The translations under genes and the position numbers were made by a program. Positions 85 to 54,560 of a stretch of 64,000 nt of DNA are shown here, one piece after another. Under the pieces are notes generated by a model, which worked only from the letters and a program-made list of their open reading frames with translations, was not told the origin of the DNA and did no database searches. The stretch comes from Maylandia zebra (Eukaryota; Chordata; Actinopteri; Cichliformes; Cichlidae), in assembly GCF_041146795.1 (NCBI RefSeq), contig NC_135177.1, positions 22,976,560 to 23,040,559 of the forward strand, written 5' to 3'. The stretch's first letter is position 1. The number at the start of each line of letters is the position of its first letter.

Positions 85-342
85 GAAAAGAAACAGCTGG
101 AGGAGCGTCTGAATGAGGTCACCGACCAGCTCACTGAAGAAGAGGAAAAGACAAAAAGTTTGAACAAGCTCAAGAACAAACAGGAAGCTGTCATCGCTGA
201 CTTGGAGGGTAACTATGCTAAACGAATTTTGACCTTCACACAAATTTGTTTCCACACAAGTAATCACACTAAGGTTGACATTTATGTATTCAAGAAGCAG
301 GTGTCCCAGCAGGAATGGATGCTGGAGTCCCGTCACATGCCC

Positions 343-383
<41 letters not shown>

Positions 384-3300
384 GATCATATGTCGCTGCA
401 TGAAGCTTTAAAATCAAGAGCTCCATTTGTACTTAGATCGAAAACAACATGCGGAAGACTTATTTGAAAGTAAATATGTCCAGAGCTTTTACACCTGCAA
501 GAATCTTTCAGGCAGGTAAAAAAAATTCCTGTTTGATCTCAAAGATTTGACGAATTAGTCTACTCGTCTGTCAAGAGCTGCAGTTACACGTGTCAGGTCT
601 GCTGAAGGTGCAGCCTGCTTCCCAGTTACAGGAATGCAACACCATCCCAGATGGTAGTGCGGAGGGGTTTTTGTATTTATTAGTGCTGTACAGTGTAACT
701 GATGTGCAACAATCAGAAAGTAATGATTTATTTCTGTCACTCACTGGTTTGTTTTGACAAACATACCTCCCTCTGTTCAGGCACCTTATAGATGCACTAT
801 CCTTTTCTCTCTTAAGCCCAAATTCAGCTACTTGACAGTAAAATAACTCCAACAGAATGGTTTAAATCACAGTCTGAAGTTTAACTGTCTAATCCAGAAT
901 TCTATAAAAATATCTGAACATTTAACAAAATAGTCAAAACTCTGATTTTTGTGCACCCTTACTGAATGGAGGAGTCTATTTTTTGCAGTGTCAGGGTTTC
1001 TGCAGTCAAAGCAAGGAGCATGACTCAAACTTAGGGTGAACAAGGCAGCCAAGAACTGTTTTAAGGTAGTTTACTGTTGGAGAACAGATATAAGTACAGG
1101 TACTAATGAAGAAAGTGGAAACAAGTTGAGGTAGGTGTGGCATGACAGGAGTTTAGTGACATCTGGTGGGTGGATGGGGAAATGCAGGCTTATTTACAAC
1201 TGTAATAACTTTACTGTTTAAATTCTGTGATTTGTAACTTACTCCATTGCTATTTGCAGAGCGCCTAAAGCGTGAAGAGCAGGGTCGCTTAGAACAGGAG
1301 AAGTTTAAAAGGAGGATGGAGAGTGAAGCTATGGAGGCCCAGGAGCAGCTGTCAGACCTGGGAATGCTGTCCTCTGAGCTGAGAGGCAGTCTGGCTCAAA
1401 AGGAAAAAGAAATCACCTCCCTGCAGGGCCGGTGAGACACAGAAAAGTATCAGAGACGCAGTAACTAAAATATAAGCCTGTAATGGATTTTTGAAGTTTT
1501 TTTGTGAATCTCTCAGGTTGGAGGAAGAAGGTGCACGCCGTGCTGAAGCTCAGAGGTCTCTAAGGGAGGCCTTGTCCCAAGTGTCAGAGCTGAAGGAGGA
1601 AGTAGAGAATGAACGAGGGATGCGGGAAAGAGCAGAGAAACAACGGCGAGACCTGAGTGAGGAGCTGGAGGCTTTGAGAACTGAGCTAGAGGACACTCTG
1701 GACAGCACAGCTGCACAACAGGAGCTCAGGTAGATGATGAGGACAAAACAAAGTTTACATTTAGTGATTTTGTTATCAGACCAGAACTCACACTTCTTAT
1801 AACTCCACAGGTCTCGACGGGAAGCAGAGTTAAGTGAGCTCCAACGATGTGTTGAAGAGGAGACTCGCCGGCACGAGATCCAGCTTTCAGAAGTCAGAGT
1901 CAAACACAGCGCTGCCTTAGACAGCCTGCAGGAGCAGCTGGACAACGGCAAGAGAGTACGAGAAACACAGAAAAATTCAAATGCACATGCATGGAGACAT
2001 GCGCAGTCTCTCACCGTGTCTCACCCATGCTCTGCTTCAGGCACGACAGTCCCTTGATAAAGCCAAGGCAGCGCTGGAGGAGGAGAGGCAGAATTTGACC
2101 TCTGAGCTCAAAAGCCTCCAAGCGAGTCGCTCAGAGAGCGAGAGGGGTCGTAAGAGGGCGGATAACCAGCTACAGGAACTGAGCGCCCGTCTGGCTCAGG
2201 CTGACAGAGAGAGGGAGGACAGGGAGGAGCGAATCCACAAGCTGCAGGTACAAATGAATAGGTACCAGTTTACTGGTTTGTGGTTTTAAGGTGTGTCAGT
2301 AAAGAAGTATTCTGTTTCTGTTCTGTTGAATGAATTTAACCTAAATGTGTCTCTTTTAGTGTGAGATTGAGTCCCTCTCCGGCAATCTGTCCTCCTCTGA
2401 CTCCAAATCTCTTCGGCTCGCTAAAGAAATGAGCAGCCTGGAGAGCCAGCTGCATGATGCAAGGGTAACAAATGCACACAGACACCAAGGCTGCATTTGA
2501 TTTGGACATTAGCCTTTGACTGTTACAGACTCCTCATGTTTAAAAAAGAAAAAGTAACTATTTCTTTAAAGTCCAGAAGAAAATCCTCTGACTGTAGGAA
2601 ATTAAAAGAACTTGATCCACTGATGACTCAAAAACAACCTCATATGCACCATTGCTCTTCTCTTTTAGGAACTGCTACAGGACGAAAGTCGCCAGAAGAT
2701 GGCCCTTGCCTCAAGGGTGCGAGCACTGGAGGAGGAGAAGAATGGACTGATGGAACGACTGGAGGAGGAGGAGGAAAGAGGCAAAGAGCTGAGCCGACAG
2801 ATCCAAACTCACAGCCAGCAGGTAAGTCTGAGGGCCGCAGTGACTTTATTTACCTCTTAAACTGCTGCTTTAGAAAGATATCAGTTAACATTTTTCATAA
2901 AATCACAGAAGTGCTTTCCTTCAGACAGTCAGTATTAAATGTAAAGTTTTCTGTCTATATCTATGACTTATGTATGCACCCTGTGTCTGTTTTACTTCTA
3001 CAGCTGACAGAGCTACGTAAGCAGTCAGAGGAGGTGAACAGTGCCGTGGAAGCTGGCGATGAGATACGCAGGAAGCTCCAGAGAGAGCTGGACAGTGCCA
3101 TTCAAAGAGAGCGACAGAAGGAGGAGGAGAAAGAAAGAGTGGAGAGGCAGAGGGAGCGACTGAGGGAGGAAATAGAGGACATGACCATTGCCCTGCAGAG
3201 AGAGAGGCAGAACTGCACGGCCCTCGAAAAAAGGCAAAAGAAATTTGACCAGGTTAGAAACATACCACTGCTTCTCACATACGCACAAAGGCTGCAAATG

Positions 3301-6300
3301 TCTTTATGCGCAGTAACATTACCTCCTTGACCCCCCCCAGTGCCTGGCAGAGGAGAAGGCGGTGAGTGCTCGGCTTGCAGAAGAGAGGGACAGAGCAGAA
3401 GCAGACAGCAGAGAGAAGGAAACAAGATGTCTAGCACTGTCCCGAGCCCTGCAGGTAAATTATTTGATAGACGGCACATAAATGTTTTTCATACATCTGT
3501 GTTTGTGATGGTAAATCGTCTGTCTTTCTGTGTGTAGGAGGCTCAGGACCAAAAAGAAGAGCTAGAGAGAGCCAACAAGCAGCTCCGTCTAGAAATGGAG
3601 CAGCTGGTGAACCAGCAGGACGATGTGGGCAAAAATGTAAGACTGTACACCTTGGGACTCTTTTTTTATTATTTCTGTCTCAGTCCTCTGTGAGTCACCA
3701 TTTCTTAAATGCTTGTGCGTCAGGTCCATGAGCTGGAGCGCACACGGAGGACCTTGGAAACAGAAGCACAGAACCTGCGCATTCAGACGCAGGAGCTGGA
3801 GGAGGAGCTGTCAGAGGCAGAGAACTCAAGACTGAGGCTGGAGGTCACCCTGCAGGCGCTTAAGGCTCAGTTTGAAAGGGAGATCAGCAGCAACGAGGAA
3901 AAGGGAGAGGAGAAGAGAAGGGCCCTGAGCAAACAGGTAGGATGGAGAATGAAAAAGGAAAGTGCTGGTGTTTCTGGTATGTACTTTTTGTCCAAGTTAA
4001 TCAGATTGTTTATGTTCTTCTTTTGATCCCAGGCAAGGGAGTTAGAGATCCAGTTGGAGGAGGAGAGGAGTCAGCGGTCTCAGTCTGTGTCATCCAAGAA
4101 GCAGCTGGAAGCAGAACTGCAGGAAGCTGAGGCCCAGGTGGAGACAGCCAACCGTGGCAAAGAGGAGGCGATGAAGCAGCTTCGAAGGCTGCAGGTAAAA
4201 CAGGGTACCCACACCTATTTAAAAAGTCAGTTTCCTGTAAATGTCAGTGTACTTAATTTAAAAATATCCTTATCAGGGTCAAATGAAGGAGGTTCTGCGC
4301 GAGCTAGATGAGGCAAAGGTGACTCGAGATGACGTCATCTCCCAATCAAAAGACAGTGAAAAGAAAATCCAAACACTGGAAGCAGAGGTCCTGCATCTTA
4401 CAGAGGTATGTATGTCTATGTCTGTGCAAAAAAACCCCATCCAATATAAATATTAAGATATCTTGCATTTATTTTTAACCAATCTTTTCTGTCTGCATGA
4501 ACGTCTCTGTGCAGGAGCTAGCTGTATCAGAGAGGCAGAAGCGACAGGCCCAGCAGGAGAGAGACGAGATAGCAGACGAGATGGTCAGCAGCAGTTCTGG
4601 AAAGTGAGTTTAACTTTACCTCTGATGCATTTTGTTGATTTGAGGGGGGGTTTGTGCACCAGTGGTGTTGTTACTGAGATTGCCTTTGTCCAGGAATGTG
4701 CTGAGCGAAGAGAAGCGGAGGTTGGACGCACGAGTCAATCAGCTGGAAGAAGAGCTGGAAGAAGAGCAGACTAACAGTGAACTGTTGACAGAGAGACTAC
4801 GGAAGACAGCCCTACAGGTATGTTCACTCTACAAGTGTCTCGGTCACACACTTTGAAGCACACACTCATCACAGCTACATTTCAACTGCAGGTGGAGACT
4901 CTGACTGTGCAGCTGCAGGGAGAGAGGACTCTGGCCCAGAAAGCAGAGGCGGCTCGAGAGCAGCTGGAGAAGCAGAACAAGGAGCTGAAGGCCCGGCTTG
5001 GGGAGATGGAGGGGGCAGTAAGGGGCAAACATAGGATGAGTGTCGCTGCCCTGGAGGCAAAAATTGAGACGATGGAGGAGCAGCTGGAACAAGAGAGACA
5101 GTACGAGAAACAGACACATGCATCAGTACAAAAATCTTCCAGTTTACAAAGCTGTAACCTGCTAAAAAGAATTCAGGAATTTAATTGTTTTATAACACAA
5201 ACTGTACATAAAAATAGACAAGGACTCTTTGGAATCACCCATTGGTTTGCAGCTACCATTTGAAGTCCACAATTTAGTATTTTGTCCTTTACTTTACTTT
5301 TTTAATTTTTGTTTGGACTAGAGGTAGTTGTCAGCTAATGCTAGCCCCCACTAGCTAACAAGGAGCGTCTATAATTTATAGTGAACTGGATTCTAACTTT
5401 GGTTGGTGAAAAATCTACTTACAAGAAAACAGACTTACTGGAGACACTGAACGGTCATCTCTTTATGGGCTCTTTTAGAAAAACCAAATGCTGAAAGAAG
5501 CTTTGTATTAAATCATGAATAGGTTCAGGCCTTAGTTTAATTTTTCAGTGGTGTAGGCCGCTTCTTGTTTCATACATAAAACTAAGAGTTTCTTTATCAG
5601 TTTAAAGTAAATTTGTTAGTTACATTGAATATTAATAATAATAATAATGTACACTTTATTGATCCCCATGGGGAAATTACTCTCTCTGCATTTGACCCAT
5701 TCACTCAGTGAAGCAGTGGGCAGCCACTAAGCAGGCGCACCAGGGAGCAGTGTGCTGCTCCTTTGCTTAGGGGTAGCCGTTCAGTGGATTCAAATCCCCC
5801 GACCTTCCAATCATGGGGCGACCACTCTACCTACTGAGCTATGCCTGCCCCAATTGGGCCCTTTATAAATGTGTTAATTAGAGAATAATGATCTCAAAAA
5901 ACCTATTTGAGATTACTTGAATCAAATTATGAATGTGAATGTGAAAGTATCCAGTTGTCCTGCTGGAAGCAGGCATCAAGAGATTGGTACACTTAAATCA
6001 CCTTTCTTCCCCATTCTAAATTTCAGTTTGGTCTTTAGCAGTTGCTGCCATGTGATTGGCTGAGTAGGTGTATGTCTAAAGGAGCAGTTCAATAATTGTA
6101 CCTAATAAAGTGGCCTATGATAATAGGTTACATTTACAACATTTATTAACAAAACGACACATGTGAACTGTGCCGTGATTGTAAATACATGGCATGGGGC
6201 GTATGAGGGTTTTCAGTGTTATAGGCCAAGCAATTACTGCCGGACAGATTTAGAATCACTAAACATCCGAGGGAAAAAAAGTCATCATTGATTGTAACAA

Positions 6301-13373: not shown

Positions 13374-13753
13374 TAGGGCTTTGTAATATGACCAAAATAT
13401 CATATCCGGAAATAAGACATTTCTCATTCTGATAATCATATATATCACAGAATAGTGCATTGTCTGTACACTCTGGGTGTTGTGTACCTGGAGTCGAGTG
13501 TTTTGACCGATGTATGAAACTATATATTTTTTAGACATAAGTTGTAGTTGCCTCATCTTCACTGGCCATGCTGGTATTTTCTGTGCCTGTATCCATATGG
13601 TGACCATCCAAACAATGAACAAATATTGCGGTGAACACTGTATTTTGTGACACCACGAAACAAATGATATATGATAAATGATAAGGATAAATATGAAACG
13701 ATGGTTGTTTTCATTTCATCATCCTATATCTATCGTCATATCGAGCAGCCCAA
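13374..13753. mobile_element. hAT-type MITE related to the one in rpl18 intron 6
   Basis: A 380-bp element starting TAGGGCTTTGTAATATGACC and ending TATCGAGCAGCCCAA. Flanking octamers CAAAGGAT (13366-13373) and CTAAGGAT (13754-13761) match at seven of eight positions. Internal sequence (TATGACCAAAATATCATATC, and GATGGTTGTTTTCATTTCATC read in context) parallels the 679-bp element at 48777-49455, so the two are one family. No coding capacity. Confidence 0.75.
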
Positions 13754-13878: not shown

Positions 13879-13989
13879 CTTGACCAGGCTTTTTCTTCAT
13901 TTTCTGACAGCAGCTGCTCTGGATCATCACCACCTTGCGTCTTCATCTTTTTTTCACTCGGTGAAGTCTTTCCTTTTCTTGGCTCTGAA
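13879..13989 (-). CDS. Possible orphan internal exon, minus strand
   Basis: On the minus strand a 111-nt open segment lies between a polypyrimidine acceptor (TTTTTCAG) and a consensus donor (AAG|GTGAGT). It encodes a hydrophilic peptide ending EQLLSENEEKAWSR. Reading is open through the exon, and the splice sites are good. No neighbouring exon in a matching phase was identified on either side; the hAT element starting at 14013 sits just upstream. It could be an exon of an unrecognised gene, a decayed gene or chance. Not identified. Confidence 0.3.
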
Positions 13990-15214
13990 CTGAAAAACCA
14001 AAGTGTGTGATCTAGGGCTGCCACGATTAGTCGACTAGTCACGATTATGTCGACTATCAAAATGGTCAACAACTAATTTAATAGTCGACGTGTCGTTTGA
14101 AGCTTTGTAAGATCTCAAAAGACGCAGGAATAAGTAGTAGGATTTAAGAGTGTAATAACGGACTGAAACAGAAGATGGTAGCACTGCATGTACAAGGATG
14201 CCAGCTGCTGTTAAACCCCGAAGAAGAAGAAGCGGTGTCTGGTAACGTAGCTGTGTCCAAATTCAGGAATGGCTTCCTCCTGTGCCCGCATTTGTATGCC
14301 AATTACGTTACAGCAACACGACGAAGACTGTCCAAATTCGAAGACTCCGACAAATGCGCCCTTCATTTCCCCAGATTTGAAGGATGGGTCGGGTGTATAA
14401 TTCGTGGCCAAACCTATCCCAGAATTCATAGTGCGGCCCTGCTCAGTTTCCAACAATGGCAGCGCTAGTTAGTTTTAATATTACTCTTATTATTCTTTCT
14501 AGGTCACAAAATAAACGTTTAACATATTTTCAGGCGAGAATGTAGCTGTGTAAACCTCAAATATCTGCTCAGTTTATCAAGACACCACATATTTTCAAAA
14601 GCGCTCCGATGTTTTCGGAGACGTCAGTTACCCACCAGCTCGATAGCTAGCCGGGGTTCAAGGCTCACTAGAGCTGATGAGAACACCGTTTTCAAACCCA
14701 CTGCCGTCGTTCGCTACTCAGGTTAAACATGATATATAAGTCACTTAGATAACTTAAAAATGTTATTGTTTGGCTTTTTTCAGTATTTTATTTGTTCCTG
14801 AGTAAATCAGTTTGGCTGAGATTAAAGTTATATTTTTTACACAGCTGAATAAACGTCAAGCAGACAACTGATTATCAGAAGTGTGAGATGCTCGAGAATA
14901 TACTCCGGTGTCCTGTTATATTTTAAATAGACAGGAGGGTAGCAACTCCATCGAAACAATCTGCAAATGTCATTAAAATTTAATAAACTATCATCTCGTC
15001 TTTATTTTTAGTTAGCACCAGCGTTGGCCAAGTTACTTGAAAAAAGTAATCAGTAACTAATTACTGATTACTTCCCCAAAAAAGTAATCCCGTTACTTTA
15101 CTGATTACTTATTTTCAAAAGTAATTAATTACTTAGTTACTTAGTTAATTTTTAAAAACACAATTTACAACCTGAATAGGTGATAAAGCGATAGATCTTT
15201 CAACCCAATTCTAC

Positions 15215-16056
15215 TTTTTCAAGTTCAAGTTCAAATTTTATTCGCCACATGCAGTGACAGGTTGCCCTGCAGTTGAATGAACCCGCCCCCCGACCATGCA
15301 CAACACAGACATCACATGGGAATACAAGTCAGAGAACGGTTGCATTACAGAAAAAACACTGAAATGTACACTACAATGGGAAAGTACAAGAGGAAAAAAA
15401 AAGACCTCTACTCATGCTGGGCTATAGAGGACAGCATGAGAACAGGAAACAAAAAAAACTCCTCTGCACAGAAAGCACATAAATGTCCACAATACAGCAT
15501 TATAGAGCACGTGACCAGCAACAGGGTTGGGTAGGGGATAAGGAGTAAACCCAGGCAACACAGCAGCCATCCTGCCACTGCGCTGACTCTCCAGCGCGGG
15601 CCTAGACCCGCCTCGTGTTCCCAGGAGGCAACAAGCATCGAAGGCATTGGAAGGGGAGGGGGGATGTGTGAGTGCTTATCAGTGTAAATGTATGTGTGTG
15701 CGTGTCCATAGTTCAGCTGAGACAGTGTCCTTCGCCCTACCAGGCTAAGTAAACAGTCTACCAGCCAACCCAGGTGGCCTTGCATAGAGTGGGAAGAACA
15801 GTCAACACACAGTCGTTATCAGGGAGTTTTTGTTCGGCTCCAGCCTTGAGCCCACAGCTGGCACCGAGGGGGTATCCGCATTGATGTTGATGTTGTTGAT
15901 TTTTCTTTTATGCGAGCAGCTCATGAGAATTTCAAAGCTGTTCTTTAACACTCCGACACTGGTCTCTCAATCTCCCGTTGGAGAACCGTGAGCTTCTCCA
16001 CGATGTTATCAAACTTATGATTTGTGGTCTTCTCATTCTTCTCATTCTTGTATGAT
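15215..16056 (-). mobile_element. Minus-strand retroelement fragment, copy 1
   Basis: It begins with the reverse complement of a retroelement tail (TCAAGTTCAAGTTCAAATTT). It then shares long near-identical blocks with 37498-39175, for example AGCTGAGACAGTGTCCTTCG near 15714 and 37994, and ACACAGTCGTTATCAGGGAG near 15807 and 39009. No recognisable protein domain. In this copy an RTE LINE follows at its right; in the other copy an L2-like LINE tail is inserted. Confidence 0.65.
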
Positions 16057-16070
16057 TCATAATCCATCAT

Positions 16071-19000
16071 CCATCCATCCATCCATCTTCATCCGCTTAT
16101 CATCCGCTCCTCCTTGAATCGCTACCTTATCGTGGTGGAGGGGTTTGTGTGTCCCAGGGATCCCAGGGGCTATGTTGTCTGGGGGCTTTTGCCCCCTGGT
16201 AGGGTCTCCCATGGCAAACTGGTCCTGGGTGAGGGACCAGACAAAGAGCGATTCAGAAGACCCCCATGAAAAGAATATCGAGGGAACAGTTTACCCTGCC
16301 CGGGATAGGGTTACCGGGGCCCCGCCCTGGAGCCAGGCCCGGGGAGGGTGCCCGAGGGCGAGCGTCTGGTGGCCGGGCCTTAGTCCATGGGGCCCGGCCG
16401 GGCACAGCCCGAAGAGGAGACATGGGCCCATCCTCCCGCAGGCCCACCACCCGCAGGAGGCGCCATAGGGGTCGGGTGCATTGTGAGCCGGGTGGCGGCC
16501 AGGAGCGGAGGCCCTGGCGGACCGACCCCCGGCTGCCAAGACTGGCAATAGGGACATGGAATGTCACCTCTCTGGTGGGGAAGGAGCCTGAGTTGGTGCG
16601 TGAGGTTGAGAGGTACCGGCTAGATATAGTTGGGCTCACCTCTACGCATTGTCTGGGCTCTGGAACCAGTCTCCTGGAGAGGGGCTGGACTCTGTCTCAG
16701 TCTGGAGTTGCCCCTGGTGAGAGGCGGCGGGCTGGGGTGGGTATTCTTATATCCCCTCGGCTTGCTGCCGGTACGTTGGGGTTTTTCCCGGTGGACGAGA
16801 GGGTTTGTTCCCTGCGCCTTAGGGTTGGGGAACGGGTCCTGACTGTCATCTGCGCTTATGCGCCGAGTGGCAGTTCGGAGTACCCAGCCTTCTTAGAGTC
16901 CCTGGGGGGGGTGCTGGAAGGTGCTCCACCTGGAGACTCTGTTGTCCTGCTGGGAGACTTCAATGCTCACGTGGGTAACGACAGCGAGACCTGGAGGGGC
17001 GTGATTGGGAGGAACGGCCTCCCTGATCTGAACCCGAGCGGTGCTTTGTTATTGGACTTCTGTGCTAATCACAGTTTGGCCATAACGAACACCCTGTTCG
17101 AACATAAGAGTGTCCATAAGTGCACGTGGCACCAGGATGCTCTAGGCCGTAGGTCGATGATCGATTTTGTAATCGTATCACCAGACCTGCGACCATATGT
17201 TCTGGACACTCGGGTAAAGAGAGGGGCTGAGCTGTCAACTGATCACCACCTGGTGGTGAGTTGGATCAGGTGGCGGGGGAGGACGCTGGACAGACCTGGT
17301 GCACCTAAACGCGTAGTGAGGGTGTGCTGGGAACGTCTAGCAGAGGCCCCAGTCCGCGAGATCTTCAACGCACACCTCCGGCAGAGCTTCAACAGCATTC
17401 CGAGGGAGACTGGGGACATTGAGTCCGAATGGACCATGTTCAGCGTCTCCATTGCCGAAGCTGCTGCATTGAGCTGCGGCCGCAAGGTGGTTGGTGCCTG
17501 CCGTGGTGGTAATCCCCGAACCAAATGGTGGACACCAGAGGTGAAGGGAGCCACCAGGCTGAAGAAGGAGGCCTATCGGGCTTGGTTAGCCTGTGGGACT
17601 CCGGAGGCAGCCGACAGGTATCGACAGGCCAAGCGGAATGCGGCTCGGGCAGTGGCTGAAGCAAAAACTCGGGTGTGGGAGGAGTTCGGAGAGGCCATGG
17701 AAAAAGACTTTCGGACTGCCTCGAAGAGATTCTGGCAAACCGTCAGGCGTCTCAGGAGGGGAAAGCGGTGCTCTACCTGCACTGTGTATAGTGCTGGCGG
17801 AGCGCTGTTGACGTCGACTGAGAAAATTGTCGGGCGGTGGAAGGAATACTTCGAGGACCTCCTTAATCCCACTGACACGTCTTCCGGGGAGGAAGCAGAG
17901 TCTGGGGATGAGGGGTGTGACCCACCGATTTCCGGGGGCGAGGTCACTGAGGCAGTTAAACAACTCCTTGGTGGCAGAGCCCCTGGTGTCGATGAGGTCC
18001 GCCCCGAGTTCCTGAAGGCTCTGGACGTTGTAGGGCTGTCTTGGTTGACACGTCTCTGCAATGTTGCGTGGAGATCAGGGGCAGTACCTGTGGACTGGCA
18101 GACCGGGGTGGTGGTCCCCATCTTCAAGAAGGGGGACCGGAGGGTGTGTTCCAACTACAGGGGGATCACACTCCTCAGCCTCCCCGGGAAAGTCTATGCC
18201 AGGGTGCTGGAGAGGAGGGTTCGTCCGCTAGTCGAACCTCGGATACAGGAGGAACAATGCGGTTTTCGTCCTGGTCGCGGAACACTGGACCAGCTCTTTG
18301 TCCTCTCGAGGATACTTGAGGGTGCATGGGAGTTTGCCCAACCAGTCTACATGTGTTTTGTGGACCTGGAGAAGGCATTCAACCGTGTCCCTCGGGGCGT
18401 CCTGTGGGAGGTGTTGCGCGAGTATGGGGTGTCTGGCCCATTGCTACGGGCCATTCAATCCCTATACAACCGTTGCAAGAGCTTGGTTCGCATTGCCGGC
18501 AATAAGTCGGACTCGTTCCCGGTGGGTGATGGGCTCCGCCAAGGCTGCCCTTTGTCTCCGGTTCTGTTCATAATTTTTATGGACAGGATTTCTAGGCGCA
18601 GCCAAGTGGCGGAGGGCTTTCGCTTTGGTGGCCTCAGAATCTCATCTCTGATTTTTGCGGATGATGTGGTTCTGTTGGCTTCATCGGGTGAGGGCCTCCA
18701 GCTCGCACTGGAGCGGTTCGCAGCCGAGTGTAACGCAGCGGGAATGAGGATCAGCACCTCCAAATCTGAGGCCATGGTTCTCAGCCGGAAAAGGGTGGAG
18801 TGCCCACTCCGGGTCGGGGATGAGTTCCTGCCCCAAGTGGAGGAGTTCAAGTATCTCGGGGTCTTGTTCGCGAGTGATGGGAGAAGGGAGCTGGAGATCG
18901 ACAGACGGATTGGGGCTGCGGCTGCAGTAATGCGGACGCTGCACCGGTCAGTCGTGGTGAAGAGGGAGCTGAGTGTAAAAGCGAAGCTCTCAATTTACCG

Positions 19001-19434
19001 GTCGATCTACGTCCCTACCCTCACCTATGGCCACGAGCTGTGGGTAGTGACCGAAAGAACGAGATCGCGGATACAAGCGGCGGAAATGAGCTTCCTCCGA
19101 AGGGTGGCTGGCCTCTCCCTTAGAGATAGGGTGAGAAGTTCGGCCATCCGGGAGGGGCTTAGAGTAGAGCAGCTGCTGCTCCACATCGAAAGGAGCCAGC
19201 TGAGGTGGTTCGGGCATCTGGCAAGGATGCCCCCTGGGCGCCTCCTGGGCGAGGTGTTCCAGGCATGTCCCACCGGGAGGAGGCCCCGGGGCAGACCCAG
19301 GACACGCTGGAGAGATTATATCTCTCGGCTGGCCTGGGAACGCCTTGGTATTCCCCCGGACAAGCTGGAGGAGGTGGCTGGGGAGAGGGAGGTCTGGACC
19401 TCTTTGCTTAGGTTGCTACCCCCGCGACCCGACC
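16071..19434 (+). mobile_element. RTE-clade (Rex3-like) non-LTR retrotransposon with 14-bp TSD
   Basis: Flanked by a perfect 14-bp direct repeat TCATAATCCATCAT (16057-16070 and 19435-19448), the product of target-primed insertion. The left end opens with (CATC)n and CATCCGCTTAT, which is the reverse complement of the usual RTE 3' tail. The right end stops at CGCGACCCGACC, where I would expect the GGATAAGCGG...GATG tail. So the copy appears to carry an inverted piece of its own 3' end at the left and to lack that tail at the right. The intact ORF and exact TSD point to recent insertion. Confidence 0.88.
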
Positions 19435-19505
19435 TCATAATCCATCATACAAAATGTAATCAAATGGAAAAGTCTCTTTTTTTTTACTTGTTTTATCAGT
19501 TTTAA
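16266..19505 (+). CDS. RTE LINE endonuclease / reverse transcriptase polyprotein
   Basis: One uninterrupted 1079-codon ORF. An APE-type endonuclease starts at about residue 96 (GTWNVTSL), with [10 protein letters not shown] near 230 and the catalytic STDHH near 324-328. The reverse transcriptase follows: [18 protein letters not shown], a motif A FVDLEKAF, a [10 protein letters not shown] motif and the catalytic IFADD at about residue 797. The C-terminal region has the RTE-style ...[11 protein letters not shown] segment. These are enzymes that nick genomic DNA and copy the element's RNA at the nick. The first ~90 Arg/Gly/Pro-rich residues are of uncertain translation, so the real start may be later. 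The last ~23 codons (after 19434) are read from flanking DNA because the element's own 3' end is missing. The usual endonuclease glutamate is replaced within GLTSTH. Activity cannot be judged from sequence. Confidence 0.88.
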
Positions 19506-20454
19506 TCTTTTAACTTTATGCATCAAGCAAAAATTAAATTATATGCAACATTCTCTGACTTGAAGAAATTAGTTTAACATTTAAACCTACTTTCTGCACA
19601 TTCCAGCACATAAAATAAAATATTTTTTGTGTTTACACTCAGTCTTTCAAATAGATGCAAGTAAAACACAGCAGAAAATAAATAAAGTCAAAGACTAGCG
19701 GTCCTTTTGCTCTATTTTCACCTGTAAAGCAGGAGTGGGGTAGGCGGAGGTTTGCCCTGGTGCAGGTGTGCCGCAGCGGTCAGTTGAAGAATCTGCGAGT
19801 TTCTCTGTGATTTTCCCATTACGTCGTTGCGCACTCAGTGCTTGTTTAGGGTTTTGTTCGCTGTAAAAAGAAGTTTTCTTCCCATGCACAATGGACACTA
19901 ATGTTTTTGTCACTTTTTATGGAATCAAACTCAAAGTAAGGTCAGTACTTCCACGCTTTAAACGCTGCATGCTCATACTCTCTTCCGTACTCGATATATT
20001 ATCCATTGTTGATCTGCACACAGCTGTTGTCACGAACTTGCTTACGTCACTGTCATGAGACATTCCCGCAAAAAAAATCCCAGTTTTAGTAACGCAGCAA
20101 CGCAGCGTTCCTACGGGAAAGTAGCGGTGATCTAATTACCATTTTTGCGATAGTAATCCCTTACTTTACTCGTTACTTGAAAAAAGTAATCAGATTACAG
20201 TAACTGCCCATCTCTGATTAGCACATACCTTAAACACTTAAAGCTGTAAGCTAATGATAGTTATATAAGAGCAGATGCATGCTGGTGCAATAAGCTGCAC
20301 TTTTACATCCACTGGATGCATGATCTGATTAGTTGACTAATCGCAAAAATAATCGGTGACTCGTCGACTATCAAAATAATGGTTTGTGGCAGCCCTAGTG
20401 TGATCACATTTGAAATAAGTTATATTTTTCCTCTGCAGTGTTGAAGAGTTGAAG

Positions 20455-20494
20455 AGCTATCATTGATTGAAGAGTGCTTCAATTAATGATAGCT
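20455..20494. repeat. Short hairpin-forming inverted repeat
   Basis: The 18-base arm AGCTATCATTGATTGAAG is followed by a 4-base spacer and CTTCAATTAATGATAGCT, pairing at 17 of 18 positions. It lies just outside the hAT element. It may be a remnant palindrome or a cruciform site; too short and A/T-rich to call a microRNA. Confidence 0.6.
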
Positions 20495-20684
20495 GTTGAT
20501 CCATTTCTCAAATAATCTCTAAGGATCTGAATTTTTTAAGAAAGAGACAAAATATCTGCTTATTAGGCTAAAAGCTTGATATAGATATTACGATTTATAA
20601 TATGTCAGCATCCCCCACAAGGCATGTAAAACCCCTGCACACCAGCACTGCGCTTATACTTCAATCAAGATAAAGTTATTATTC

Positions 20685-37497: not shown

Positions 37498-39175
37498 TGA
37501 ATCAGAATCAGAATACTTTATTCATCCCGAGGGAAATTAGGGGTTACAGCAGGCAGCACGCTAATGGCGCATGCGCACTCACAAAGGAACCTTCTGACCA
37601 ACTTTACACAAACATCACATTGGGCAGACATGTCAGAAGGTAGGCTGATAGGAAAAAAACAACGAAAATACACTACATGAGGTAAGAGGAGGAGAAAAAA
37701 AACTCCACTCAGACTGAGCTCCTAGTGGGAGAACAGTTTGATAAAAGAAAAAACACCTCAGCACAAAAGCACATGACTATCAATACACCATAGAAACACG
37801 AGACAAGCAACAGGGGCGGGTAAAGGGTAAGAGAGAGCCGGCGTAGACAGCGCATCCGGTCCTGCAGCATCTGTGCTGGTCCAGTTGACTGCTATCATCC
37901 CCGGTAGGGCACAAGCATCGAAGGCGTTGGAAAGGGAGGGGGATGAGTGAGTGCTTATCAGTGTAAGTGTGTGTGTGTGCGTGTCCATAGTTTAGCTGAG
38001 ACAGTGTCCTTCGGCCTATCAGGCTAAGTAAACAGTCCTCCAGCCAATCCAGGTGTCCTTATCATTAAATTTTTTACAGCTAAACGAAAACAAAACTGAG
38101 GTTGTCATTTTTGGCAATTTCAATCATATCGACAGCACGTTGGGTACCCTCTCCTCGTATTGTAAAACACATGTAAAAAACCTCGGAGTTTACATTGATG
38201 GTTCTTTTAAATTGAATAAGCAGGTGAGTGCAGTAGTTCAGTCCTGTTTTTTTCAGCTAAGACAGCTAGCCAGGATAAAGCCATACCTTCCGGCTGACGT
38301 CTTCGAGCGCATCATCCACCTTTTTCTTACTTGCAGATTGGACTACTGCAATTCATTGTATTATGGCCTAGATCATGCCACCATCCATCGCCTTCAGATG
38401 GTTCAAAATGCTGCTGCTCGCCTGCTAACCGGTACCAAACGGAGAGAGCATATAACCCCAATTTTAGCCTCTTTACACTGGCTCCCTGTCCCCTACAGGA
38501 TCCAATTTAAACTCTTACTTTTTGTTTTTAAGTCACTCAACGCCCGAGCCCCCCCCCTACTTGTCAGAGCTCCTCTCTGCCTATGCTCCAGGAAAACCCA
38601 CGAGATCTAGTTCAAAACTATTGTTGTCCATTCCACGGACTAACCTCAAATCTCGTGGTGATAGATCCTTCTCTGTGGCAGGTCCCAGACTTTGGAATAG
38701 TCTCCCCTTTAATATTAGATCTGCTCAAACTCTTGAGCAATTTAAATCTTTACTAAAGACACACTTTTACGCTCTGGCTTTTAACACATTATGACCCAAG
38801 CATTTTGGATTTATCTGAATTAGTTAGTATTGTTTCAATTCTTCTATTTTATTGTTTCTATTGTTATTATTGTATTACACTGTAGTTTTTAATTTTATTG
38901 TTATTGTTAAGCACTTTGTGCAGCATCGGCTGTTGGAAATGTGCTATATAAATAAATCTGACCTTGACCTTGACCTTGACCTTCATGGGGCGGGAAGAAT
39001 AGTCATCACACAGTCGTTATCAGGGAGTTGTTTTGGTGGGCTCCAGCCTTGGGCCTGCAGCTGGGGCCGTGGTGTCCAAATGTTGAATATTGTTGATTTC
39101 TCCTTTGTGAGCAGCTCGAATTCTAGCACTCCGAGGCTGGTCTCTCGATCTCCCGAATAAAAGGTTAAGAGGATC
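37498..39175 (-). mobile_element. Minus-strand retroelement, copy 2, interrupted by an L2-like LINE
   Basis: It begins AATCAGAATCAGAATACTTT (reverse of a retroelement tail) and shares many blocks with 15215-16056. Its continuity is broken at 38061-38983: the sister copy runs straight from CCAGGTGGCCTT to GCATAGAGTGGG, while here the two sides are about 920 bp apart. No protein domain recognised in the outer element. Confidence 0.7.
38061..38983 (+). mobile_element. 5'-truncated L2/CR1-type LINE tail, inserted in copy 2
   Basis: An ORF spans 38053-38610 and continues in another frame at 38522-38794, so there is a frameshift near 38550. It reads NENKTEVVIFGNF, VKNLGVYIDGSF, CRLDYCNSLYYGL, QNAAARLLTG and LASLHWLPVPYRIQFKL. 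This is the conserved C-terminal region after the reverse transcriptase in L2/CR1-like fish LINEs. The 3' end has tandem TGACCT units, typical of L2-type microsatellite tails. No catalytic domain remains. Confidence 0.8.
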
Positions 39176-44454: not shown

Positions 44455-50632
<6,178 letters not shown>

Positions 50633-51843: not shown

Positions 51844-53200
51844 GGGTGTCCCCGCCCTGCGATTCAAGGACAGGGTAAGGTGCAACAATGGGCATCGGTA
51901 GGGTCTTTTTCTGTGTGTGTGCTTTATCAGGACGGGACATCAGCCAAGTATTGATTTTGTCTACACCACAGCTTGCATAATGTTTCCTGACTGCTATAAA
52001 AGTTGAAAGATGTGAACAGTTTATTAATTTAGGGTAAACCGAAGTCCCAGGTGAGACTGCAGCAATTGTACTTTATGAGCTAAAGTCTAATGATCTGTCT
52101 CCTGCTGACTTGGTAATTTATCATTGCTATAACCTCACGTGTAATGTAATTTGAAAATAATACATGTGTTTCGGTGTATTTTGATTATATATCCAGGGTT
52201 TTTCTAGGGTCAACATGAGTATTTTATGCAGAAGTCTGTGCGTTTTCCTATTATATGGGGACATGTTGTAAAACAAAGTTATGTTTAAGCTTGACTGAAT
52301 GAAATCCCACTTTCAAAAATCATACCTCTGTTTGTTTTATTTTGGTAGAAGTTTAAAACCTTTTTGGAGGGAAATAAAAGATTTACCATACAGGGAAAAT
52401 CCTGATATGGCTCTTTGATAAGAGGTGATACCAGACCTCCTTGTTTGGTACAAATATGAGACTGTACTAATGCTTATTGCAAAGTCTGTAAAATATAATA
52501 CAATTATTTAGGTTAGGTTATTTAAACCGTGAAAGAGACACTGTGTCCCTAAATCCTGTTACGCAGAAGTTACCCTGAATTAGAAAAAAAACACATGAAT
52601 TATCATGCAACCTTTCCTCTACAAAAAATAGTGTCTCAGCAAGCCAGTTGAGGATGTGTGACTCTTGAGTCATTACGTGGTTTATCACAGACGCACCTCA
52701 GGTCAAAGGGCATAACGAATCTTATATTGCTTCACCCTGTACCCATAATCAGTTTTCTTATCATCAATGTCCTCCTCTGTACTTGACTGAAGTATTGTTT
52801 TTGTGCAGTACAATCAATCTAAAGTTTTATTCATTTCATGTAATTTACTGTTGTGCTTCTTAAATTTTGATTTCTTAAATATTTGCAAAATCATGTCATG
52901 GTTATCACCACAGCGTTGTGGTGTGGTCATAGTGCTGAGGCTTGTACTGGCAAGCAAGATTCTGCTCTTACTGAGGTAACATCAGCTATAACACTGGATT
53001 ATCAGTGTTACAAAGGGTGATTCGCTTTTTACCAGAGTAAATGATCTATTCTGACCCATGGACCTAATGGTACAGCTATTTTGAGGGGGTGAAGTTTTTG
53101 TCTGAGAAATTTTGAAAAATGAGAAACAATGGATTCTTAGTGCCATCCATCCATCTACCACTATCATGGTTTGAATGTGTACCAGTCTTACCAGAGTGAC

Positions 53201-53201
<1 letters not shown>

Positions 53202-53234
<33 letters not shown>
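53202..53234. repeat. Poly-C run of 33 bases
   Basis: An uninterrupted C homopolymer in the RTE relic. Its length is likely variable or unreliable, and it can form i-motif or G-quadruplex structures. Confidence 0.9.
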
Positions 53235-53761
53235 ATTGCCTCCCCTAGTACTTCCAGGAAGACGCCAAGGTATTCACAGTCTTTATGGGAGATATAATCT
53301 CTCCAGCACCTCTTTGGTGTACCCCAGAGAGTCCTCACGATAGGACATGACCAAAACAGTTCACCTTGGAGGCACCCAGGGAGCATCCCACTCCTTTTGA
53401 TGTGTAGGAGGAATGACTCTACTTTGAGCCCTTCCAAAACGACCAAGCTTCTCACCCTATCTCTAATCTGCTGATTGTGTTGATGATGTCAGTATTTCAG
53501 TTCACTACCCAGAGCTTGGGTCCACAGGTGAGGGTAGGAATGTAGATCAACAGGTAAACCATCAAGTTTAGCTCTCTCTTCACCGCAATAAACCGGTTTA
53601 TCGTCCACATCATTGCTGATGCTGTGCCAATCAGCCTTTCAAACTCGCATCACTCATGAATCAGACCCAGAAATAGTTAAACTCCTTCACTTCGGCCAGC
53701 AACTCCTCTCTAACCTTGAGTGGGCAATCACCCCTTTTCTGACTGAGAACCTTGTGTCTTA

Positions 53762-54251
53762 GGCTACGTTCACACTGCACACTGTCTTAATGCTCAATTC
53801 CGATTTTTTGATCAGATCCGATTTTTTTGTCTGCTTGTTCACACTACAAATAAAATGTGACAGCAAAAGCGCTCTAGTGTGAACCCTCAAAGTGGCCCGC
53901 ATGCACAAAAGAAGACATCACACACAACGCGCTCTGTTTAGACCCAGAGCAAACAGTATTGTTTGACTGATAGCCCTTAATATAAAGACTTGTTTCAGTC
54001 TTTACGTTTCCCAATTTTTCTTTAAGTTATAAAGTTATTTTGTTATTTACATATGGCCTAATAATTATCCTTATTGCAGTTTTAGAGAGGAGCTGTGCTT
54101 CAAAGGATAGTTGCAGGTTTCTGTCAGAATCTGCAGATTATACAGTACAAATAAAATGTTCACGTTTCTCCAACGTTGTCTTCTCAACAGTTTAGGGTAG
54201 GGTCAAAAAAGTCGGATTTGATGCGCTTTTGCTTGCAGTGCGAACATAGCC
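53762..54251. mobile_element. PIF/Harbinger-like MITE with TTA target duplication
   Basis: 490 bp with termini GGCTACGTTCACACTGCA and TGCAGTGCGAACATAGCC. It is flanked by TTA on each side (53759-53761 and 54252-54254), the typical PIF/Harbinger TSD. It contains TCCGATTTTTT motifs in both orientations. It interrupts the RTE relic and therefore post-dates it. Confidence 0.75.
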
Positions 54252-54560
54252 TTAGATTCGCTAATTCTTATCCCACTTCACACTAAGCTACCAACCACCT
54301 CGGTGCTGGAGGCCACTTCCTGGTGAGGCAAAAAAAATAAATAAAAATTGCATGATTCCACAAAAAAGCAAAGAGATTATCCATGGCCTCCAAAACAGAA
54401 ACCTTCCACAATCTTACTGCACTTAGAAATTCTGTCTACAAAAGCTACAAATAGAACTGGTGACAAAGGGCAGCCCTGATAGAGTCCAACTTCCACCGGG
54501 AGCGGGTCTGACTCTTACTGCTGGCAATGTGAACTAAGCTTTCACTGGCTGTACAGGAAC

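What the first reader, a model, noticed from the sequence alone, without database searches (positions are those of the whole stretch)
14005..20405. Four-level nest of transposable elements
An outer hAT-like element (exact TSD GTGTGATC) contains a second hAT-like element (TSD 7/8). That one contains a minus-strand retroelement, next to which or in which an RTE LINE landed (exact 14-bp TSD). Boundaries and TSDs give an explicit order of insertion in one locus.
Basis: partly seen in the sequence, partly recalled or inferred. Interest (0 to 1): 0.7.

Follow-up and report, generated by a model that had tools for sequence, protein, structure and literature searches.

The report
Nested fish transposons around inverted LINE
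A fish-like intron holds jumping genes nested inside one another, which is ordinary, but the innermost one (a Rex3-like LINE) carries its tail at the wrong end, as if it had been copied into the genome from both sides at once.

Summary
The nest is real. An outer element with hAT-like ends (14013-20397; 12-bp inverted ends, exact TSD GTGTGATC) holds a second one (15019-20216; TSD 7/8). That one holds a minus-strand retroelement fragment (about 15220 to 16050; second copy at 37.6-39.2 kb) and an RTE-type LINE with an exact 14-bp TSD. Nested transposons are ordinary.

Two points change. (1) Containment does not order insertions 'in one locus': cut-and-paste elements can carry inserts. The fourth level (LINE inside the retroelement) is not shown. 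(2) The LINE was misread. Its 1090-codon frame meets no stop before leaving the element and has no tail at the ORF end. The published Rex3 tail, stop-GCG-(GAA)2-(GATG)n, stands at the other end in reverse orientation (16071-16101; 1 mismatch in 21, 0 expected). Best reading: twin priming. Reverse transcription began in the minus orientation, a second cDNA started about 31 nt from the tail end at a 2-bp microhomology, and the whole body came out inverted.

All 28 searches of the window's own genome did not complete, so the family's normal 5' end is unchecked.

The parts
14005..14012 (.). left TSD of outer element, GTGTGATC
14013..15018 (.). outer hAT-like element, left part (TIR TAGGGCTGCCAC); its last 8 bases 15011-15018 are the left TSD copy of the second element (GTTAGCAC)
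15019..15219 (.). second hAT-like element, left part (CAGCGTTGG...)
   Evidence: right edge at about 15220 is where the (CAAGTT)n tail of the retroelement begins, read by eye
15220..16056 (-). 3' part of a minus-strand retroelement: (TTGAAC)n tail, 3' untranslated region, and the end of a reading frame (15948-16046 minus); right border not found
   Evidence: second copy at 37606-38060 and 38977-39155; frame; no Pfam match
16057..16070 (.). left TSD of the LINE, TCATAATCCATCAT
16071..16101 (-). LINE 3' terminus in reverse orientation: stop TAA, GCG, GATGAA, (GATG)n; 31 nt
   Evidence: published Rex3 tail in PMC6274825 (passages)
16102..19434 (+). LINE body, about 3.33 kb, with one open frame (16233-19434 within the LINE) carrying endonuclease and reverse transcriptase; no stop and no tail at its right end
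19435..19448 (.). right TSD of the LINE; its first two bases TC are a possible microhomology with the element
   Evidence: that the family has TC at this point is recalled
19449..20216 (.). second hAT-like element, right part (some of the left end may still be retroelement); broken minus-strand frame 19849-19935 resembling a BED-type finger of fish hAT elements (recalled)
   Evidence: Pfam found no match
20217..20397 (.). outer hAT-like element, right part; 20217-20224 is the right TSD copy of the second element (ATTAGCAC)
20398..20405 (.). right TSD of outer element, GTGTGATC

Best explanation
A stack of independent transposon insertions in a fish-like genome. A hAT-like element without a detected transposase was entered by a second hAT-like element, and that one by a minus-strand retroelement and by a Rex3/RTE-type LINE, in an order not fixed between these two. 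Shown: TSDs, termini, containment, the LINE's domains, and the place and orientation of the LINE tail. Inferred: the LINE came in by twin priming. Target-primed reverse transcription began from the (GATG)n tail of the RNA in the minus orientation, at a target that resembles the tail's complement (ATCCATCAT). The first cDNA grew only about 31 nt, covering tail and stop codon. The exposed 3' end of the other target strand annealed to the same RNA at a 2-base match just before the stop codon and was extended to the RNA's 5' end. Joining the two cDNAs left a 3.33-kb body inverted relative to a 31-nt tail, between 14-bp TSDs, with almost nothing lost.
For: Exact TSDs and anchored ends. The ORF runs through its last LINE codons (LLPPRPDL, 19413-19436) into the TSD without a stop. 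The stop-GCG-(GAA)2-(GATG)n string that defines the Rex3 end (PMC6274825, passages) is on the minus strand at 16079-16099, 1 mismatch in 21, 0 in 100 shuffles, and nowhere else in the window. The one other RTE copy in the window (aligned 54540 to 53289, minus strand) has GATGGATGGATGG in sense orientation about 130 bp beyond its last aligned base, where about 110 bp of ORF remain. Yardsticks from L1: 132 of 287 inverted insertions had the two cDNA ends within 20 bp, TSD median 13 bp (PMC12016303, passages); 28 of 605 lacked a microhomology at the 5' junction and about 70% had 2-5 bp (PMC2912911, passages).
Against: No normal full-length copy of the family was seen: 28 own-genome searches did not complete, so an inverted tail that is native to the 5' end is not excluded. 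[quoted passage not shown] A survey of snRNA chimeras found for L2 and RTE only template switching (PMC4476161, passages). In L1 the noninverted cDNA has medians of 253 bp (somatic) and 571 bp (germline), far longer than 31 nt. The 2-bp microhomology depends on a recalled family sequence.
Confidence: 0.7

Rival explanations
1. Native structure: this LINE family normally begins with an inverted copy of its own tail, and this copy is a plain plus-strand insertion that lacks its 3' end.
For: No normal 5' end was seen here; the stub sits exactly at the 5' boundary next to the TSD.
Against: It needs two separate facts (an inverted tail at the start, and a loss of exactly the stop and tail at the end) where one event explains both; the other copy in the window has the run in sense at its 3' side, though it is 5' truncated and says nothing about the 5' end.
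Confidence: 0.15
2. Other one-off histories: inversion of the body after a normal minus-strand insertion, or reverse transcription of a chimeric read-through RNA that began in an oppositely oriented tail.
For: Both could give a tail and a body in opposite orientations.
Against: A later inversion would need breakpoints exactly at the TSD edge and just before the stop; a chimeric RNA would also need loss of its own 3' tail, although the tail is what a tail-dependent LINE is primed on (inference).
Confidence: 0.1
3. One reading: four successive insertions at this locus in an explicit order, the LINE being a plain plus-strand insertion.
For: TSDs and containment.
Against: Cut-and-paste carriers may have moved with their loads; the retroelement has no found TSD or right border; the LINE's tail is at the other end.
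Confidence: 0.05

Closest known systems
Rex3 (RTE-clade non-LTR retrotransposon of teleosts)
   Same: Endonuclease and reverse transcriptase in one frame; stop-GCG-(GAA)2-(GATG)n end.
   Different: The end stands in reverse orientation at the other side of the body; no tree was made.
Twin-primed (5'-inverted) L1 insertions
   Same: Two segments in opposite orientation between TSDs of 10-20 bp; cDNA ends that nearly abut; short microhomology.
   Different: A LINE of another type; noninverted part only about 31 nt; the inverted part is about the whole element.
Non-autonomous hAT elements of fish
   Same: 8-bp TSDs and short terminal inverted repeats.
   Different: No transposase found in the pieces tested; superfamily assignment rests on the ends.
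Nested transposable elements in fish, e.g. at medaka Sox5 (PMC5789577, seen in the search listing only)
   Same: Elements inside elements in a fish genome.
   Different: That title reports co-option; no function is suggested here.

Membership tests
Rex3 / RTE-clade LINE | One frame with apurinic-type endonuclease and reverse transcriptase | tested here: met
   PF00078 E 2.4e-37, PF14529 E 3e-08, PF03372 E 1.2e-07
Rex3 / RTE-clade LINE | Stop codon followed by GCG, (GAA)2, (GATG)n | tested here: met
   Present with 1 mismatch, but inverted at the other end of the body
Rex3 / RTE-clade LINE | Place in a tree of RT sequences within RTE/Rex3 | not tested
   No reference sequences of the clade were held; best solved relatives were L1 and R2 proteins, which says nothing about clade
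Twin-primed LINE insertion | Inverted and noninverted segment between one pair of TSDs | tested here: met
Twin-primed LINE insertion | Noninverted segment ends in the element's own 3' tail next to the TSD | tested here: met
   16071-16101 next to 16057-16070
Twin-primed LINE insertion | Microhomology at the junction of the inverted segment with the target | tested here: inconclusive
   2 bp (TC, 19435-19436) if the family reads CTC before the stop, which is recalled
hAT superfamily | 8-bp TSD | tested here: met
   8/8 outer, 7/8 second element
hAT superfamily | Short terminal inverted repeats starting (C/T)A(A/G)NG (motif recalled) | tested here: met
   TAGGG; CAGCG/CAGAG. Unanchored scores are not beyond random
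hAT superfamily | TSD motif nTnnnnAn of many hATs (recalled; not shared by all) | tested here: inconclusive
   GTTAGCAC fits; GTGTGATC does not
hAT superfamily | hAT transposase | tested here: inconclusive
   No Pfam match, but only 14148-14468 and the broken frame around 19849-19935 were given; hence only 'hAT-like'

The most novel reading that the evidence does not exclude
A Rex3/RTE-type LINE in a fish can twin-prime, and can do so within its last 30-odd nucleotides. This turns a full-length, open-frame element end over end against its own tail. Such a copy looks intact to an annotator, yet its stop codon and tail lie on the wrong side, and its insertion strand is the opposite of its coding strand.
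Probability: 0.65. Interest if true: 0.4.

Novelty: new member of a known kind. Interest (0 to 1): 0.27.

Why it matters
As a nest it is ordinary. The LINE copy matters a little more. In the passages read, 5' inversion by twin priming is documented for L1 and hardly for other LINEs (PMC4245944: human L1 and one Nimb-2_DR insert). A clear case in an RTE-type LINE would show that both target strands can prime on a LINE RNA that is recognised by a specific tail. It would also warn that annotation by ORF strand can give the wrong insertion strand. A survey of tail orientation against ORF orientation in fish genomes would test it at once.

Tried and rejected
Own genome: the genome search 'own' was sent 28 times and stretches of G000 three times; none was answered. 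So there are no copies, empty sites or ages from the rest of the genome for any of the four elements.

Other collections: LINE protein in genome contigs: of 15 stretches that matched a pattern, 1 encodes a relative (L001). Viral contigs: none by protein or by three typed patterns. phages: none. plasmids: one 30.6%-identity hit, not followed up. 16071-16500 in the L001 genome: none. tRNA genes 0 and Rfam matches 0 in the window.

Rejected: another element inside the outer one at 14249-14846 (13-nt inverted pair, 85%), as no TSD was seen by eye. A TSD for the minus-strand retroelement: none convincing by eye. The frame of that retroelement read across the LINE site stays open for 71 codons, but the far part is AT-rich and the piece tested has no family match, so it does not settle the border. 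Inverted repeats as proof on their own: rejected.

Papers: passages only of PMC6274825, PMC5389967, PMC13295347, PMC2912911, PMC12016303, PMC4476161, PMC2887409; passages and section 16 of PMC4245944. Ostertag and Kazazian 2001 is not held and is known here through others. Searches on twin priming with RTE, BovB, Bov-B, Rex3, non-LTR, fish or zebrafish: 6 of 6 papers listed; 20 of 111 listed; 0 papers; 12 of 24 listed. I saw no report for Rex3/RTE in these listings and passages; most subscription papers are not held. Further searches: 20 of 26 listed; 20 of 96; 10 of 11; 10 of 82.

Full report
What was checked. The window is part of a 962-Mb genome in 63 contigs with animal-type genes (myosin tail exons and a YegS_C lipid kinase exon). 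That it is a fish is inferred from the repeat types (recalled) and from the one relative found: a fragment 85% identical over 164 bases to 19007-19170, in a contig of an Epulopiscium MAG. That these bacteria live in fish guts is recalled.

The nest. The outer element runs 14013-20397, with a 12-bp perfect inverted terminus (TAGGGCTGCCAC) and an exact 8-bp TSD, GTGTGATC. The second element runs 15019-20216, with ends CAGCGTTGGCC and CAGAGATGGGC and TSD GTTAGCAC/ATTAGCAC. Both have hAT-like ends. No transposase domain was found, but only two pieces were tested. The inverted repeats taken alone are no better than the best 0.1% of random pairs, so the assignment rests on anchored ends and TSDs. 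Inside the second element lies the 3' part of a minus-strand retroelement (about 15220 to 16050). A second copy, 73-74% identical, lies at 37606-39155, and its two halves are parted by 916 bases that end in (TGACCT)n. The LINE lies at 16071-19434 between exact 14-bp TSDs.

What the nest proves and does not. Containment shows that the outer element existed before the second entered it, and the second before the two retroelements entered it. It does not show that all this happened at this locus: hAT-type elements move by cut and paste (established knowledge) and may carry inserts. The four levels are three plus one undecided, since the retroelement's right border and TSD were not found.

The LINE is turned against its tail. 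The frame (16233-19502, 1090 residues to the first stop, which lies beyond the LINE) has endonuclease and reverse transcriptase domains. Its last LINE residues are LLPPRPDL at 19413-19436, after which the frame runs into the TSD: no stop, no tail. A review gives Rex3 a stop codon, GCG, two GAA and GATG repeats (PMC6274825, passages; the running text writes GATC, the figure legend GATG). This string, TAAGCGGATGAAGATGGATGG, stands on the minus strand at 16079-16099, between the left TSD and the 5' region of the LINE: 1 mismatch, 0 expected, no other match in the window. The one other RTE copy seen in the window, aligned from 54540 to 53289 on the minus strand in three pieces at 66-74% identity, has GATGGATGGATGG in sense orientation about 130 bp beyond its last aligned base, where about 110 bp of ORF remain. 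So, on the minus strand, the copy reads: TSD, whole body inverted, stop and tail in the right orientation, TSD.

Mechanism. Twin priming makes this structure. One target strand primes on the RNA tail; the 3' end of the other target strand anneals inside the same RNA and is copied towards the RNA's 5' end. Here the switch would have come about 31 nt from the tail end, at TC/GA shared by target and element (if the family reads CTC there, as I recall). If TAA is the in-frame stop, CTC-?GA-TAA suggests that about one nucleotide was lost between the two cDNAs. In human L1, 132 of 287 inverted insertions had the two cDNA ends within 20 bp, and TSDs had a median of 13 bp (PMC12016303, passages). Only 28 of 605 inverted L1s lacked a microhomology (PMC2912911, passages). 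The 14-bp TSD and the abutting cDNAs fit. Unlike L1 (noninverted medians 253 and 571 bp), the first cDNA is very short and the second is the whole body, 3.33 kb. A Tetraodon Rex3 interval used in print is 3170 bp (168-3,337; PMC2887409, passages), so the body is probably about full length; its true 5' end was not tested.

What speaks against it. No normal full-length copy of the family was seen, because 28 requests to the own genome did not complete; a native inverted tail at the 5' end stays open (0.15). In a study of more than 200 LINE insertions, 5' inversions came from human L1 except for one zebrafish Nimb-2_DR insert (PMC4245944). An snRNA survey found only template switching for L2 and RTE (PMC4476161, passages). 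This makes the case less expected, and more useful if right.

Verdict. The nest is ordinary. The LINE is probably a new example of a known process in a LINE type for which I saw no report in my searches (two of these lists were capped).

Noticed in passing
window 37606-39155: Second copy of the minus-strand retroelement, itself split at 38061-38976 by a LINE-like piece (192-codon frame 38032-38607, no Pfam match; tail (TGACCT)n); a second nest in the window.
   Followed up: partly
window 53143-54540, minus strand: Decayed RTE copy with a run of 33 C on the + strand (53202-53234) and a sense (GATG)n end.
   Followed up: partly
window 13879-14012, minus strand: By eye, an exon of 111 bp (13879-13989) whose acceptor lies 23 nt from the outer element. 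The element's end reads ...GACTAAT... on that strand, so it may supply the branch point. Not tested.
   Followed up: no
window 13374-13751 and 48779-49455: Flank of the nest is itself repeated DNA: three pieces match at 75-86%, opposite strand.
   Followed up: no
window 20452-20497: Near-perfect palindrome just outside the nest: two 21-nt arms, 90% complementary, 4 nt apart.
   Followed up: no
L001 6001-6192 (MDJM01000023.1, Epulopiscium MAG): Rex3-like fragment (80% protein identity) at the end of a contig filed as bacterial; probably host fish DNA in a bacterial genome bin.
   Followed up: partly
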